Shown one piece after another: positions 2,618-53,307 of a DNA stretch of 64,000 bases. The position numbers and the translations under genes are program-made. Origin of the DNA: Halorubrum sodomense (GTDB taxonomy: Archaea > Halobacteriota > Halobacteria > Halobacteriales > Haloferacaceae); the NCBI RefSeq assembly GCF_900111935.1, contig NZ_FOYN01000001.1, positions 542,069 through 606,068 on the forward strand, written 5' to 3'. The stretch's first letter is position 1. Every line of letters starts with the position of its first letter. The notes beneath the pieces were generated by a model. That model was not told the DNA's origin and did no database searches. It worked only from the letters and a program-made list of their open reading frames with translations.

Positions 2618-3691
2618 TCACGCCGGTCGCAGCGTCGTTCGCTTCGTCTCGTACTCCTCTAGGAAGGCCTCGTATCCCCCGACCTCGGCCGTCTCCTCGC
2701 CGAAGTCGATCCGGAGCGAGTTCTCGAACCCGAAGTCGCTGCTGCTGGGCGCGAGGAGGTTCTGCCGGACCTCGACGACCTCGCCCCGCCGCGTTTCGAA
2801 CGGCTCCTCGGTGCCAGTCTCCCTGAGGTAGCACTCGGCGTCGACCGAGCGGCCGGACCGTCGGTGGAGGGCGGCCGTGAACACCGCCGGTCGGAACCGC
2901 TCGAACGTCCGTGGCAGGTCCGGAGGACGGGAAACGAGGAGCTCTTCGCCCAGCGGCCAGTAGTTACCGAGGTACGAGCCGACCAGGATGGCGGCGATGT
3001 CCGGCTGTGTGAACGTGATCGCGCGGGTGTCGTCGTGGTCCCACCCCAGCATCGTGGCCGGGGAGACGAACCCGCGCTCCTGGTCGACCGAGAGCAGCGA
3101 CGGCATCCCCGGCTGCGCGAGGCGAACAGTGCTCGCGACGCCCTCCAAGGGCGCGCCGGTCGCCGGAGCCGTCTCGGCGTCGGGGGCGGCGTCGCCGCAC
3201 AGCGAGAGGAGGACGAGGACCCCGCGGTCGCGGGCGTCGCGGAGCGGGTCGGCGATCTCCGGGAGGCGCCGCGCGGGCAGCTGGAGCACGACCTCGGAGT
3301 CGGCCGCCCGAATGTACGACCGCAGCCGCTTGATGATCGTCGACCGCGACTTCACGACCGACAGCTCCTCGTCGGCCGTCCCGGGGCGCTGGTACCGGTC
3401 GTCGACGGCGGACTGGAGCGCGTCGAGGTCGGACCGCAGCGAGTCGAACGCCCGGTCCGGCGGCACCGCGCGGAGGACCGTCGGTGTCCGGTCGCTCTTG
3501 ACGGTCACGAACCCCTTCGCCTCGAGTTCGTCGCAGATGTCGTACACGTGGCTCGTCGAGATGTCGGCGGCGTCGGCGACCGTGCTGACCGTCGCCGAGC
3601 CCCGCTCGACGACGGCCAGGTACGCGTCGGCGGCCGCTTCGGAGAACCCGTACCGTTCGAGCAGCCGACGGATCTCGTCTGTGTCTGGCAT
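2618..3691 (-). CDS. TrmB-family transcriptional regulator
   Basis: This 357-residue protein has an N-terminal winged helix (about residues 5-75, with the recognition-helix region around ISTSHVYDICDELEAKG), followed by a phospholipase-D-like regulator region and a C-terminal TrmB-type ligand-binding domain. TrmB proteins bind sugars or related ligands and control sugar transport and metabolism. The frame is open back to a TTG at 3727, but that codon lies against the AT-rich TATA-like run at 3729-3737. The ATG at 3691 is therefore the better start, with a leader of about 14 bases. The gene lies directly downstream of the GH3/cohesin pair on the same strand, so control of that pair is plausible but not shown. 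Confidence 0.88.
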   Translation of the reverse strand: MPDTDEIRRLLERYGFSEAAADAYLAVVERGSATVSTVADAADISTSHVYDICDELEAKGFVTVKSDRTPTVLRAVPPDRAFDSLRSDLDALQSAVDDRYQRPGTADEELSVVKSRSTIIKRLRSYIRAADSEVVLQLPARRLPEIADPLRDARDRGVLVLLSLCGDAAPDAETAPATGAPLEGVASTVRLAQPGMPSLLSVDQERGFVSPATMLGWDHDDTRAITFTQPDIAAILVGSYLGNYWPLGEELLVSRPPDLPRTFERFRPAVFTAALHRRSGRSVDAECYLRETGTEEPFETRRGEVVEVRQNLLAPSSSDFGFENSLRIDFGEETAEVGGYEAFLEEYETKRTTLRPA

Positions 3692-11592: not shown

Positions 11593-11683
11593 GGCCGTCC
11601 GTTCGCCGCAGCGATACCTAAAACCCGGCGGTCGGCGGAGGGGAACGGAGTCGACAGACACGCCGACGCGACGGCGACACGGT

Positions 11684-12040
11684 CTATAAATAGGCGACTG
11701 CGGGGCGGCGGCGCGTGCCTGCGAGGCCGCCTCGCGGCCGAGCAGCACGCGCGAGGGACGCGGCGACCGGAGCGAAGCGGAGGGAGCCGCGAGGCTGGGG
11801 AGGCGTGAGGTGCTGTGCGGGGCGGGACTCGAAGGGGCAGCCGGGATGGCGGCGGAGGCGATGTAAGCACCGCAGGGAGCGAACGTAGTGAGCGACCGAG
11901 GAGCGTGGTTCGAGAGAGCGAAGCTCTCTCGTCATCACGAGACGCCTTCGGCGTCTCGAACGACAGCAAGCGTCCGCCGCCATCCCGGCTGGGGCTTCGG
12001 CGGTGTTCGCCGCCGATCCTCCGTAGACTGTTTATAAATT
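11684..12040 (+). ncRNA. Structured dispersed repeat, copy 1 (candidate RNA)
   Basis: This is copy 1 of a family with copies at 34200-34540 and 52898-53307. It begins at a TATA-like CTATAAATAG (11684-11693). Hairpin I pairs GCGCGTGC (11711-11718) with GCACGCGC (11745-11752) around an inner GGCCGC/GCGGCC stem. A 30-base core at 11791-11820 is identical in copy 2. The long stem pairs CAGCCGGGATGGCGGCGGA (11838-11856) exactly with 11973-11991; two small hairpins lie inside its loop. A GGCTGGGGCTTCGGCGGTGTT module and TTTATAAA (12031-12038) close it. Stem bases differ between copies while pairing is kept, which favours an RNA over a protein. Its function is unknown. Confidence 0.7.
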
Positions 12041-33127: not shown

Positions 33128-34210
33128 ATGATCCCGCTCGCGACGGCGATGGCTCCCGGCGAGATCGGTCTTCGCGTGGCGGCCGGCGTCGCCCTCATCC
33201 TGATCAACGCGTACTTCGTGGCGATCGAGTTCGGGCTGACGCGCCTGCGTCAGTACCCCGAATCGGAGATGGACTCACCCGGGCTCCGCCGCGCCTGGGA
33301 GATGACCGACGACCTGGAGTTCTACCTGACGACCTGTCAGGTGTGGATCTCCGGGACCTCCATCGCGCTCGGTATCGTCGCCGAGCCGGGGCTCGCGGCG
33401 CTTTTCGCGCCGATATTCGAGAACACGGCGCTCGCGTCCGCCGGCGCGGGCTCGCTGCTCGGCTTCTTCCTCATCAACATGGTCCACCTCACCCACGGCG
33501 AGCAGACGCCGACGTACCTCGGCGTCGAGCGCTCGAAGCAGGTCGCCCGGTACGGCTCCCGGCCGCTGTACTGGTTCGCGTGGCTCATCTCGCCGCTGAT
33601 CAAGTTCGGCGACTGGGTCGCGAAGGCGACGCTCGGGCTGTTCGGCGTCGAGATGACCGGGTCGTGGACCGAGGCCGAAGAGGAGGTGTTAGAGACGCGC
33701 GCACAGCTGCGCAACCGTCTCGGCTCGATGATGGAGGAGATCGAGCTCCCCGAGGAGCGCCGCGAGGAGGTCCTCAACGCGCTCGACGTCGGCGAACTCG
33801 CCGTGCGGGAGGTGTTGACCCCCGCCGACGAGATCGTCTCGCTGTCGACGACCGCCTCCGCCGAGGAGAACCTCGACCGGATCCGCGACACTCCGCACAG
33901 CCGCTTTCCGCTCGTCGGCGACGACCTGAACGACTTCGAGGGGATCGTGTACGCCCCCTCCATCGTGAGCCGCTTCGACGAGCTCCGGGACGGCGACCTG
34001 TCGTTCGCGGACGTCGCCGCCCCGCCGATGACGGTCTCGGCGGACGTGAGCGTCAGCAACGCCTTCGACCAGTTCCAGGCGGAGTCACAGGAGCTCGCTC
34101 TGGTGATCGAGGACGGCGAGGTCGTCGGGCTGATCACCGCGACCGACGCGATGGAGGCGGTGATGGGACAGTTAGAGGACCCGCTGGACGCTGGTAATGT
34201 TATAAAATAA
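33128..34210 (+). CDS. CNNM/CorC-type membrane protein (DUF21 plus CBS pair)
   Basis: This 360-residue protein has a DUF21/CNNM membrane domain with about three or four helices (1-160), then two CBS domains (about 215-345) that bind adenine nucleotides. The family is linked to Mg2+ or Co2+ handling. A GTG at 33119 is an alternative start; TATA-like GCTTTTCAA at 33096-33104 favours the ATG. The C-terminal CorC_HlyC domain of longer members is absent. The last five codons (GGT AAT GTT ATA AAA) are AT-rich, unlike the rest, and lie at the edge of the repeat element starting at 34200. The repeat may therefore have truncated the gene. Confidence 0.85.
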   Translation: MIPLATAMAPGEIGLRVAAGVALILINAYFVAIEFGLTRLRQYPESEMDSPGLRRAWEMTDDLEFYLTTCQVWISGTSIALGIVAEPGLAALFAPIFENTALASAGAGSLLGFFLINMVHLTHGEQTPTYLGVERSKQVARYGSRPLYWFAWLISPLIKFGDWVAKATLGLFGVEMTGSWTEAEEEVLETRAQLRNRLGSMMEEIELPEERREEVLNALDVGELAVREVLTPADEIVSLSTTASAEENLDRIRDTPHSRFPLVGDDLNDFEGIVYAPSIVSRFDELRDGDLSFADVAAPPMTVSADVSVSNAFDQFQAESQELALVIEDGEVVGLITATDAMEAVMGQLEDPLDAGNVIK

Positions 34211-34540
34211 GACGCGGCGGCGAGTGCCGGTGAGCGCCCGAAGGGCGCGAGACCGCACGCGCGAGGGAGTCGCGAACGTAGTGAGCGACGAGGCTGGGGA
34301 GGCGTGAGGTGCTGTGCGGTACGCGGTGGGATTCAAAGGGGCAGCCGGGAGGCCGCCGTAGGCGACGTAAGCACCGCAGTGAGTGAGCGAAGCGAACGAA
34401 CGAGGAGCACAGCGAGCGTGCGCCCGCCTCTCGGCTGGGGCTTTGGCGGTGTTGACCCCGGGGTCGTCGATCACATAGCGCCGAGCGGCTGGGGCTTCGG
34501 CGGTGTTCTCAGCCGATCCGGGAGCAGCTATTTATAAACG
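34200..34540 (+). ncRNA. Structured dispersed repeat, copy 2 (candidate RNA)
   Basis: This copy begins at TTATAAAATA (34200-34209), over the end of the CNNM-type gene. Hairpin I has an inner stem GCGCCC (34234-34239) with GGGCGC (34243-34248). The 30-base core at 34290-34319 is identical to copy 1. The long stem pairs CAGCCGGGAGGC (34342-34353) with GCCTCTCGGCTG (34426-34437), including one G-U pair. Two GGCTGGGGCTT modules follow, 54 bases apart, the second ending in TTTATAAA (34531-34538). Reading frames in it do not align with those of the other copies. Confidence 0.7.
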
Positions 34541-52287: not shown

Positions 52288-52764
52288 TTACTCGTCGAGG
52301 ACGTCGTCGTACTCGCCGGCGTCGACGCGGTCGTCGAACGTCCGGGCGTCCTCGCCCTCGATGGTGACGCCGAGGGAGGCGCAGGTGCCGCCGACCTCCT
52401 TGGCGGCGGCCTTCGTGTCGTACGCGAGCAGGTCGCTCGACTTCTGCTCGGCGACCGTCTTCACCTGTTCGATGGACATGTCCGCGACGAAGTTCTTCTG
52501 AGGCTCGCCGGAGCCGGTCTCGAAGCCGGCCTCGTCCTTGATAAGCTCCGCGGTGGGCGGCACGCCGACCTCGATGGTGAACGAGCCGTCGTCGTCGTAG
52601 TCGACGGTGACGGGCACTTCCATGCCGTCGAACGCGGCGGTCTCGTCGTTGATCTGCGCGACGACGTCTTGAACGTCCACCGGCGTCGGTCCGAGCTCGG
52701 GACCGAGCGGCGGGCCGGGGGTGGCCTGCCCGCCGGGGACGAGCGCTTCGATAGTTCCAGCCAT
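52288..52764 (-). CDS. rpl11: Ribosomal protein L11
   Basis: This 158-residue large-subunit protein binds 23S rRNA at the GTPase-associated centre. The N-terminal domain contains GGQATPGPPLGPELGPTPVD and the C-terminal domain KEVGGTCASLGVTIEG. The length is typical of archaeal L11. TATA-like GTTAAAAGTC lies about 25 bases before the ATG at 52764. In many archaea L1, L10 and L12 are nearby, but here L11 stands alone. Repeat copy 3 lies about 130 bases upstream. Confidence 0.97.
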   Translation of the reverse strand: MAGTIEALVPGGQATPGPPLGPELGPTPVDVQDVVAQINDETAAFDGMEVPVTVDYDDDGSFTIEVGVPPTAELIKDEAGFETGSGEPQKNFVADMSIEQVKTVAEQKSSDLLAYDTKAAAKEVGGTCASLGVTIEGEDARTFDDRVDAGEYDDVLDE

Positions 52765-52897: not shown

Positions 52898-53307
52898 TTT
52901 ATAAAGGATCTCGATATTCCGAGTGGAGCAATAGCGAACCCCTAGCCGCTCATTTATAAATGTCTGATGCCGGATCGGCGGAGAACGCCCCCAAAGCCCC
53001 AGTCCCTCGTTTATAAATAGTTGATCGCGGTTCGGCGGCGAACACTTCCAAAGCCCCAGCCGCGAGGCGGGCGCACGCTCGCTGCGGTCCTCAGTCGCTC
53101 GTTTCACTCGCTCCTTGCGGTCCTTGCGTCGCCTGCGCCCGCCTCGCGGCTGCCCCTTTGAGTCCCACCCCGCACAGCACCGCAACCGCACCTCACACCT
53201 CCCCAGCCTCGTCGGCCTCCCTCCGGTCGGCCGACTCCCTCGCGCGTGCTGCTCGCGGCCAAGGGCCGCTCGCAGGCACGCGCCACCGCCTCGTTTATCT
53301 ATAAATC
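52898..53307 (-). ncRNA. Structured dispersed repeat, copy 3 (candidate RNA)
   Basis: This copy lies on the minus strand. It starts at TATA-like DNA (53293-53306). Hairpin I pairs GCGCGTGC with GCACGCGC (53242-53249 and 53276-53283) around GCGGCC/GGCCGC. The core (53170-53210) carries an 11-base insertion relative to the other copies. The long stem pairs CAGCCGCGAGGCGGGCGC (53057-53074) exactly with 53135-53152. Three modules resembling CTGGGGCTTTGG follow at 57-base spacing (near 53057, 53000 and 52943), each ending in TTTATAAA. The third is degenerate. It lies upstream of rpl11 in the same orientation. Confidence 0.7.

What the first reader, a model, noticed from the sequence alone, without database searches (positions are those of the whole stretch)
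11684..12040. Three-copy structured repeat whose stems covary between copies: candidate undescribed RNA family
Copies at 11684-12040 (+), 34200-34540 (+) and 52898-53307 (-) share order: TATA-like box, hairpin I, a core 30 bases identical between copies 1 and 2, a long-range stem, a GCTGGGGCTT module and a closing TTTATAAA. The long stem is CAGCCGGGATGGCGGCGGA in copy 1, CAGCCGCGAGGCGGGCGC in copy 3 and CAGCCGGGAGGC in copy 2, each with its own complementary arm. Hairpin I has inner stems GGCCGC/GCGGCC, GCGGCC/GGCCGC and GCGCCC/GGGCGC. Paired changes with kept pairing indicate selection on RNA (or cruciform) structure. All copies lie between genes. An expressed regulatory RNA or a mobile RNA-like element are both possible.
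Basis: partly seen in the sequence, partly recalled or inferred. Interest (0 to 1): 0.9.

Follow-up and report, generated by a model that had tools for sequence, protein, structure and literature searches.

The report
Haloarchaeal modular foldback repeat family

Summary
Observation confirmed and extended. The three copies share one order: P1 hairpin, P2 hairpin, G-rich core, long P3 stem, then tail units ending in TTTATAAA. A P3 covariance model finds about 86 loci in this genome (all 84 examined lie between genes) and matches 309 of 391 class-level genomes (73 of 86 genera). Nothing in Rfam matches. P3 covariation is far above controls. G·T pairs exceed A·C (49:17; 35:6), so one strand is folded, as RNA or ssDNA.

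It is not a three-copy RNA gene. Thirty of 30 testable copies sit at the same site in a relative with flanks about 93% identical, yet at 21 of these sites P2 is either identical (8) or wholly replaced (11 below 75% identity), usually by a hairpin found elsewhere in the genome. Much of the apparent covariation between copies is therefore whole-hairpin exchange. Nearly pure Watson-Crick stems, triloops and a TATA-like box too close to P1 argue against a simple promoter-driven RNA. Best reading: a BOX/PATE-like, transposase-free modular foldback repeat, now mostly immobile; mobiliser unknown. A single-copy P3 relative sits beside an RPA-like gene on plasmids of several genera.

The parts
11683..12038 (+). 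Copy 1, long form
   Evidence: R1 match 81 bits over its P3
11683..11690 (+). 5' boundary box TCTATAAA
   Evidence: boundary consensus
11707..11757 (+). P1 hairpin (GCGCGTGC/GCACGCGC) with inner stem GGCCGC/GCGGCC
11757..11791 (+). P2 hairpin GCGGC-GA-CCG...CGG-AGG-GA-GCCGC, k-turn-like by inspection
11791..11821 (+). Invariant G-rich core GAGGCTGGGGAGGCGTGAGGTGCTGTGCGG
11826..11999 (+). P3 domain, long-range stem CGAAG-GGG-CAGCCGGG.../...CCCGGCTG-GGG-CTTCG
11867..11904 (+). Inner P4 hairpin with tandem G.A steps (GCACC...GGAGC)
11905..11967 (+). Optional double-hairpin insert inside P3
   Evidence: similar double hairpins in IS605-type left ends
11986..12038 (+). 3' tail unit ending in TTTATAAA
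34200..34538 (+). Copy 2, short form
   Evidence: R1 126.7 bits
34216..34267 (+). P1 hairpin, inner stem GCGCCC/GGGCGC
34290..34320 (+). Invariant core
34330..34446 (+). P3 domain
34432..34538 (+). Two tail units (54 bp, then a second ending in TTTATAAA)
52898..53305 (-). Copy 3, short form, upstream of and on the same strand as rpl11 (52288-52764)
   Evidence: R1 135.7 bits
53237..53287 (-). P1 hairpin, inner stem GCGGCC/GGCCGC
53209..53237 (-). P2 hairpin GTCGGCC...GGCCGAC
53180..53210 (-). Invariant core, variant GAGGCTGGGGAGGTGTGAGGTG
53049..53164 (-). P3 domain with P4 hairpin
52898..53062 (-). Tail array: two clear units and one decayed unit, each ending in TTTATAAA

Best explanation
A class-wide haloarchaeal family of transposase-free, modular foldback repeats, working like pneumococcal BOX elements and Haloquadratum PATEs. 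SHOWN: a conserved multi-domain single-strand fold, 10 to at least 95 matches per Halorubrum genome in the first 22 congeners, all examined copies intergenic, TTTATAAA boundaries, tandem tail units, copies fixed in place between relatives about 93% identical, and turnover of P2 (and visibly other hairpins) by whole-block replacement. INFERRED: copies originally spread as non-autonomous mobile elements into TTTATAAA-like sites, using a fold of one strand (ssDNA or RNA) recognised by a factor supplied in trans. Most copies are now stationary and are remodelled by non-allelic gene conversion, which moves complete hairpins between copies and so keeps the fold; tail units multiply by slippage next to the strong P3 hairpin. 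Any effect on neighbouring genes (end structures of transcripts, recombination hot spots) would be secondary.
For: About 86 dispersed loci, none of 84 examined inside a gene, tail facing a gene 3' end in 57 of 84. 22 of 22 first-searched congeners have 10 to at least 95 matches; 309 of 391 class genomes, 73 of 86 genera. Left-boundary TTTATAAA with at most 2 mismatches in 47 of 69, versus 2 of 207 control windows. 30 of 30 testable copies shared with G065. P2 at 21 orthologous sites: 8 identical, 11 below 75%, 8 of those 11 with a paralog of 90% or more. Same site, different stems, 1-6 tail units at rpl11 across species. Covariation: 19 of 36 P3 pairs with two-sided changes within the genome, 31 of 36 across families. 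G.T over A.C 49:17 and 35:6. Site occupancy also varies between species at the M50 locus. Similar tandem-G.A hairpins and double-hairpin inserts occur in the left and right ends of haloarchaeal TnpB elements. BOX elements show the same modularity, preference for convergent regions and slow current insertion (PMC3049150).
Against: No clean young insertion with a target duplication was found, so transposition itself is inferred. No mobilising enzyme is identified: Y1_Tnp is absent from G000, G002, G004, G005, G016, G019 and G029, which carry 50 or more matches, and RVT_1 from all 20 genomes searched. Conservation of the P3 core across families and its single-copy place beside an RPA-like gene on plasmids look like more than decay of a parasite. 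The IS605 similarity is weak (best E 1.2e-4) and may be convergent hairpin design.
Confidence: 0.55

Rival explanations
1. A multicopy structured non-coding RNA family of the host: each copy is transcribed, folds by P1-P2-core-P3, binds a protein or metabolite, and copies are kept because the RNA is useful.
For: Deep P3 covariation across families; G.T over A.C on one strand; core GGCTGGGGAGG and P3 core AAGCACCGCA/GAGGAGCGCA conserved between families; stronger z-score as RNA than as DNA; positions conserved in 30 of 30 orthologous sites.
Against: G.T pairs are scarce (7 of 2165 P1 cells); triloops dominate, which RNA does not favour; TATA-like box too close to P1 for a promoter; P3 interior is sometimes inverted inside its stem, which would destroy the RNA core; copy number varies from 10 to at least 95 among congeners. 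No transcript data seen.
Confidence: 0.25
2. A single-stranded DNA device of plasmid origin: the P3 hairpin and palindromes next to an RPA/SSB-like gene act in plasmid replication or transfer, and chromosomal copies are derivatives spread by recombination.
For: Seven plasmid records from at least six genera carry one P3 match 424-556 bp from, and divergent to, a ~290 aa OB-fold protein gene; 4 Halorubrum OB loci also have it; the interval is rich in conserved palindromes; DNA-friendly GNA triloops in P2 and P4.
Against: The OB-fold family is missing from G000, G003, G005, G007, G017, G021 and others with many copies; only P3 is shared, not P1, P2 or the core; the plasmid interval is not recognisably the 5' half of the chromosomal element.
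Confidence: 0.12
3. True PATEs: internally deleted IS200/IS605-type transposons moved by TnpA.
For: Tandem-G.A hairpins and the GGGTGGGG-type sequence after the hairpin resemble TnpB-element ends; PATEs are numerous and heterogeneous in Haloquadratum (PMC3119063).
Against: No TnpA in the window's own genome; several TnpB elements here begin after TTAC, not TTTATAAA; best model match near tnpB only E 1.2e-4.
Confidence: 0.06

Closest known systems
BOX elements of Streptococcus pneumoniae (boxA-boxB(n)-boxC), PMC3049150
   Same: Dispersed, intergenic, modular, a part present in variable tandem number, strongly folded if transcribed, over-represented between convergent genes, low present-day insertion rate, no transposase inside.
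   Different: Different domain of life; here the variable unit is a 3' tail ending in TTTATAAA; much larger fold with P1, P2, core and P3; whole hairpins exchanged between copies; present in most genera of a class. No BOX sequence comparison was run.
PATEs (palindrome-associated transposable elements) and SMRs of Haloquadratum walsbyi, PMC3119063
   Same: Haloarchaeal, transposase-free, palindrome-rich, many copies; small repeats inserted into near-terminal palindromes recall the double-hairpin inserts here.
   Different: No TnpA in this genome; boundary is TTTATAAA; fold is longer and conserved across families; HqIRS sequences themselves were not compared.
REP/BIME elements with RAYT (Y1) transposases
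   Same: Intergenic palindromes with strand-specific hairpins.
   Different: No Y1 transposase in this genome; element is several times longer and multi-domain.
IS605/TnpB omega-RNA and end hairpins in haloarchaea
   Same: Tandem G.A hairpin motif and G-rich sequence after it.
   Different: No coding gene, no guide position, not next to tnpB; weak similarity only.

Membership tests
Any Rfam 15 family | Match at or above gathering score | tested here: not met
   Only a tRNA in the whole window; permissive scans give nothing credible
BOX-like modular dispersed repeat | Many dispersed intergenic copies without a coding gene | tested here: met
BOX-like modular dispersed repeat | A module in variable tandem number | tested here: met
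   Tail units 1-4 in this genome, up to 6 in relatives
BOX-like modular dispersed repeat | Sequence relation to boxA/boxB/boxC | not tested
   no sequence comparison run
PATE | Near-terminal palindromes related to IS605-type ends | tested here: inconclusive
   R1 matches on the tnpB strand upstream of tnpB in several of 30 loci, best E 1.2e-4, most short and weak
PATE | TnpA (Y1) available in the cell | tested here: not met
   Y1_Tnp absent from G000 and six other genomes with 50 or more matches
MITE | Terminal inverted repeats and target duplication | tested here: inconclusive
   By inspection none in Halorubrum copies beyond TTTATAAA at both ends; some copies in G025 and G026 do have GTGTTCAGATAA ends
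Retroelement | Reverse transcriptase encoded in the genome | tested here: not met
   RVT_1 absent from 20 of 20 genomes, control genomes ring
Structured non-coding RNA | Covariation above background | tested here: met
Structured non-coding RNA | Transcript | not testable with these tools
   no expression data; promoter spacing unfavourable

The most novel reading that the evidence does not exclude
Probability: 0.2. Interest if true: 0.85.

Novelty: new variant of a known kind. Interest (0 to 1): 0.6.

Why it matters
It is a very common unannotated feature of haloarchaeal genomes: in the two Halorubrum genomes examined closely, one copy per about 15-35 kb, and present in most genera of the class. 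It offers a natural system for studying how folded repeats keep their fold while their sequence turns over by exchange between copies. It also warns that covariation between paralogous copies can be produced by hairpin exchange, so covariance evidence for an RNA should come from independent loci. If the strand is transcribed, or the plasmid P3 binds the RPA-like protein, it becomes a testable new nucleic-acid device.

Tried and rejected
Rfam, default and permissive: nothing. Retrotransposition: no RVT_1. TnpA-driven movement today: no Y1 in several high-copy genomes. TnpB omega-RNA identity: only weak matches. Composite transposon: four of the close convergent pairs flank a housekeeping gene (hisA, a phosphoribosyltransferase, a Thi4-like gene, purE), so not cargo. 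Coding tail: unit lengths are often multiples of 3, but some units have in-frame stops (window copy 2). Virus carriage: no match in 50,697 phage records, four viral-contig stretches by exact pattern. The OB-fold protein as a required partner: absent from the window's genome. Cruciform acting on both strands: disfavoured by the G.T/A.C asymmetry. Literature searches found no description of this repeat; one library of open papers only.

Full report
THE OBSERVATION. Copy 1 used as a BLAST query gives 86 pieces in the window's own 3.03 Mb genome, and a covariance model of the P3 domain (R1, 20 copies, 36 pairs) gives about 86 non-overlapping loci. None of 84 examined lies inside a predicted gene (my own simple gene finder). 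No Rfam family matches. A pattern scan of named genomes points to Halorubrum as the main genus and also finds Haloparvum, Halobellus, Halorussus and Halosimplex.

ANATOMY. Order on the element strand: TTTATAAA; mostly 7-10 nt; GGTGGCGCGTGCC (P1 5' arm) with a variable inner hairpin; P2; core GAGGCTGGGGAGGYGTGAGG; a G-rich linker ending GGGYGGGACTC; P3 (CAAAG-GGG-CAGCCG.../...CGGCTG-GGG-CTTTG); inside P3 a conserved AAGCACCGCA...GAGGAGCGCAGCGAG loop and the P4 hairpin made of two-pair steps alternating with tandem G.A; then tail units CGGCTGGGGCTTTGG...TTTATAAA, mostly 57 bp. Long forms carry double-hairpin inserts. In Halorussus, Halosimplex and Haloparvum examples the outer P3 frame is kept but the inside is a different hairpin.

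STRUCTURE IS REAL AND ONE-STRANDED. In the 20-sequence alignment, made without structure, 95.8% of cells pair, 19 of 36 pairs have two-sided changes and 0 of 500 shuffles reach this. Over 50 sequences from several families, aligned to the model and so leaning towards it, 31 of 36 pairs have two-sided changes, with covariation score 0.647 against 0.165 shuffled and at most 0.082 for slid versions. Non-Watson-Crick cells are G.T far more often than A.C (49:17 and 35:6), as expected if one strand folds alone rather than both arms of a cruciform. The alignments come from a covariance search, so some bias is possible, but P1 and P2, scored without any model, go the same way in small numbers (7:1 and 4:1).

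RNA OR DNA. For RNA: covariation and the slightly stronger z-score as RNA. For DNA-level maintenance: P1 has 1984 Watson-Crick and only 7 G.T cells, three-base loops in 174 of 232 P1 hairpins, and GNA triloops are the commonest P2 loops. GCGAAGC mini-hairpins and tandem sheared G.A after a pyrimidine are, from general knowledge, very stable in DNA. The 5' TTTATAAA mostly ends 7-10 nt before P1, which on the usual archaeal TATA spacing would start a transcript after the P1 5' arm (inference). I leave RNA versus ssDNA open.

HOW IT EVOLVES. I mapped own copies onto 0.8 Mb of G065, most flanks 87-98% identical. All 30 mappable copies have an element at the same place. At the 21 of these sites where P2 could be parsed, P2 is identical in 8 and below 75% in 11; in 8 of the 11 the own P2 has a copy of at least 90% identity elsewhere in the same genome. 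This is the signature of whole-hairpin exchange between copies. At rpl11, many Halorubrum species have an element at the same spot and orientation, with different stems and 1-6 tail units; other species have none. At the M50 peptidase locus occupancy also varies, and in several species without the element the downstream gene differs too, so the element may sit at rearrangement breakpoints. In a few copies the inside of P3 is inverted within its stem.

MOBILITY. TTTATAAA is strongly enriched at the left boundary (47 of 69 within 2 mismatches, 2 of 207 controls) and ends many tail units. The tail faces the 3' end of the next gene in 57 of 84 (about p = 0.001 by a binomial estimate of mine); the P1 side shows no clear preference (45 of 84). 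Five close pairs are all convergent and four of them flank a single housekeeping gene. There is no RT and no Y1 transposase in several high-copy genomes. In G025 and G026 diverged P3 copies lie in short units with GTGTTCAGATAA ends. So past dispersal is likely but the mobiliser is unknown.

RELATIVES. IS605-type TnpB elements in Halobacteria have end hairpins with the same tandem-G.A design, G-rich sequence after the hairpin, and similar double-hairpin inserts; the match is weak. BOX elements (PMC3049150) and PATE/SMR repeats of Haloquadratum (PMC3119063) are the nearest described kinds. On plasmids of Haladaptatus, Haloprofundus, Halobacterium, Natrinema, Halopiger, Haloplanus and strain DL31 a P3 match (all seven confirmed by model R2) sits 424-556 bp from a divergent OB-fold, RPA-like gene, often followed by an HNH endonuclease-type gene; four Halorubrum OB loci have the same arrangement. 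The OB gene is not in the window's genome.

VERDICT. Best filed as a new modular foldback repeat family of the BOX/PATE kind whose fold is kept partly by hairpin exchange. Whether any copy is a working RNA is open.

Noticed in passing
L435-L441 near 3001-3108; L443, L448, L454, L455: Single-copy P3 relatives on plasmids, divergent from an RPA-like OB-fold gene, with a conserved palindrome-rich 420-560 bp interval and often an HNH endonuclease-type gene next to it.
   Followed up: partly
L117:8792-10029, L164:2917-3919, L152:2827-4341, L157:2584-3781, L132:2577-3508: All five close pairs of copies are convergent; four flank one housekeeping gene each (hisA, phosphoribosyltransferase, Thi4-like, purE).
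   Followed up: partly
window 34210 and L322, L323, L325, L334: Species lacking copy 2 also have a different gene downstream of the M50 peptidase, as if a rearrangement broke at the element site.
   Followed up: no
G065:C1:1707584-1707699 versus L116:2619: The inside of P3 is inverted within its own stem between orthologous copies.
   Followed up: partly
L085, L088, L094, L099: P3 carried in short units with GTGTTCAGATAA/TTATCTGAAC-type ends in two other families; no autonomous partner found in those genomes by exact pattern.
   Followed up: partly
L395:306-405, L398:324-400, L414: TnpB elements have left-end hairpins with tandem G.A steps and optional double-hairpin inserts like those in the repeat.
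   Followed up: partly
core, linker and P3 of 84 own copies: Four G-tracts, all four present in 56 of 84 copies; possible G-quadruplex at high potassium.
   Followed up: no
tail arrays: Tail unit lengths other than 57 are mostly multiples of 3 (51, 54, 63, 66, 69), and near-identical neighbours are almost always the P3-proximal pair.
   Followed up: partly
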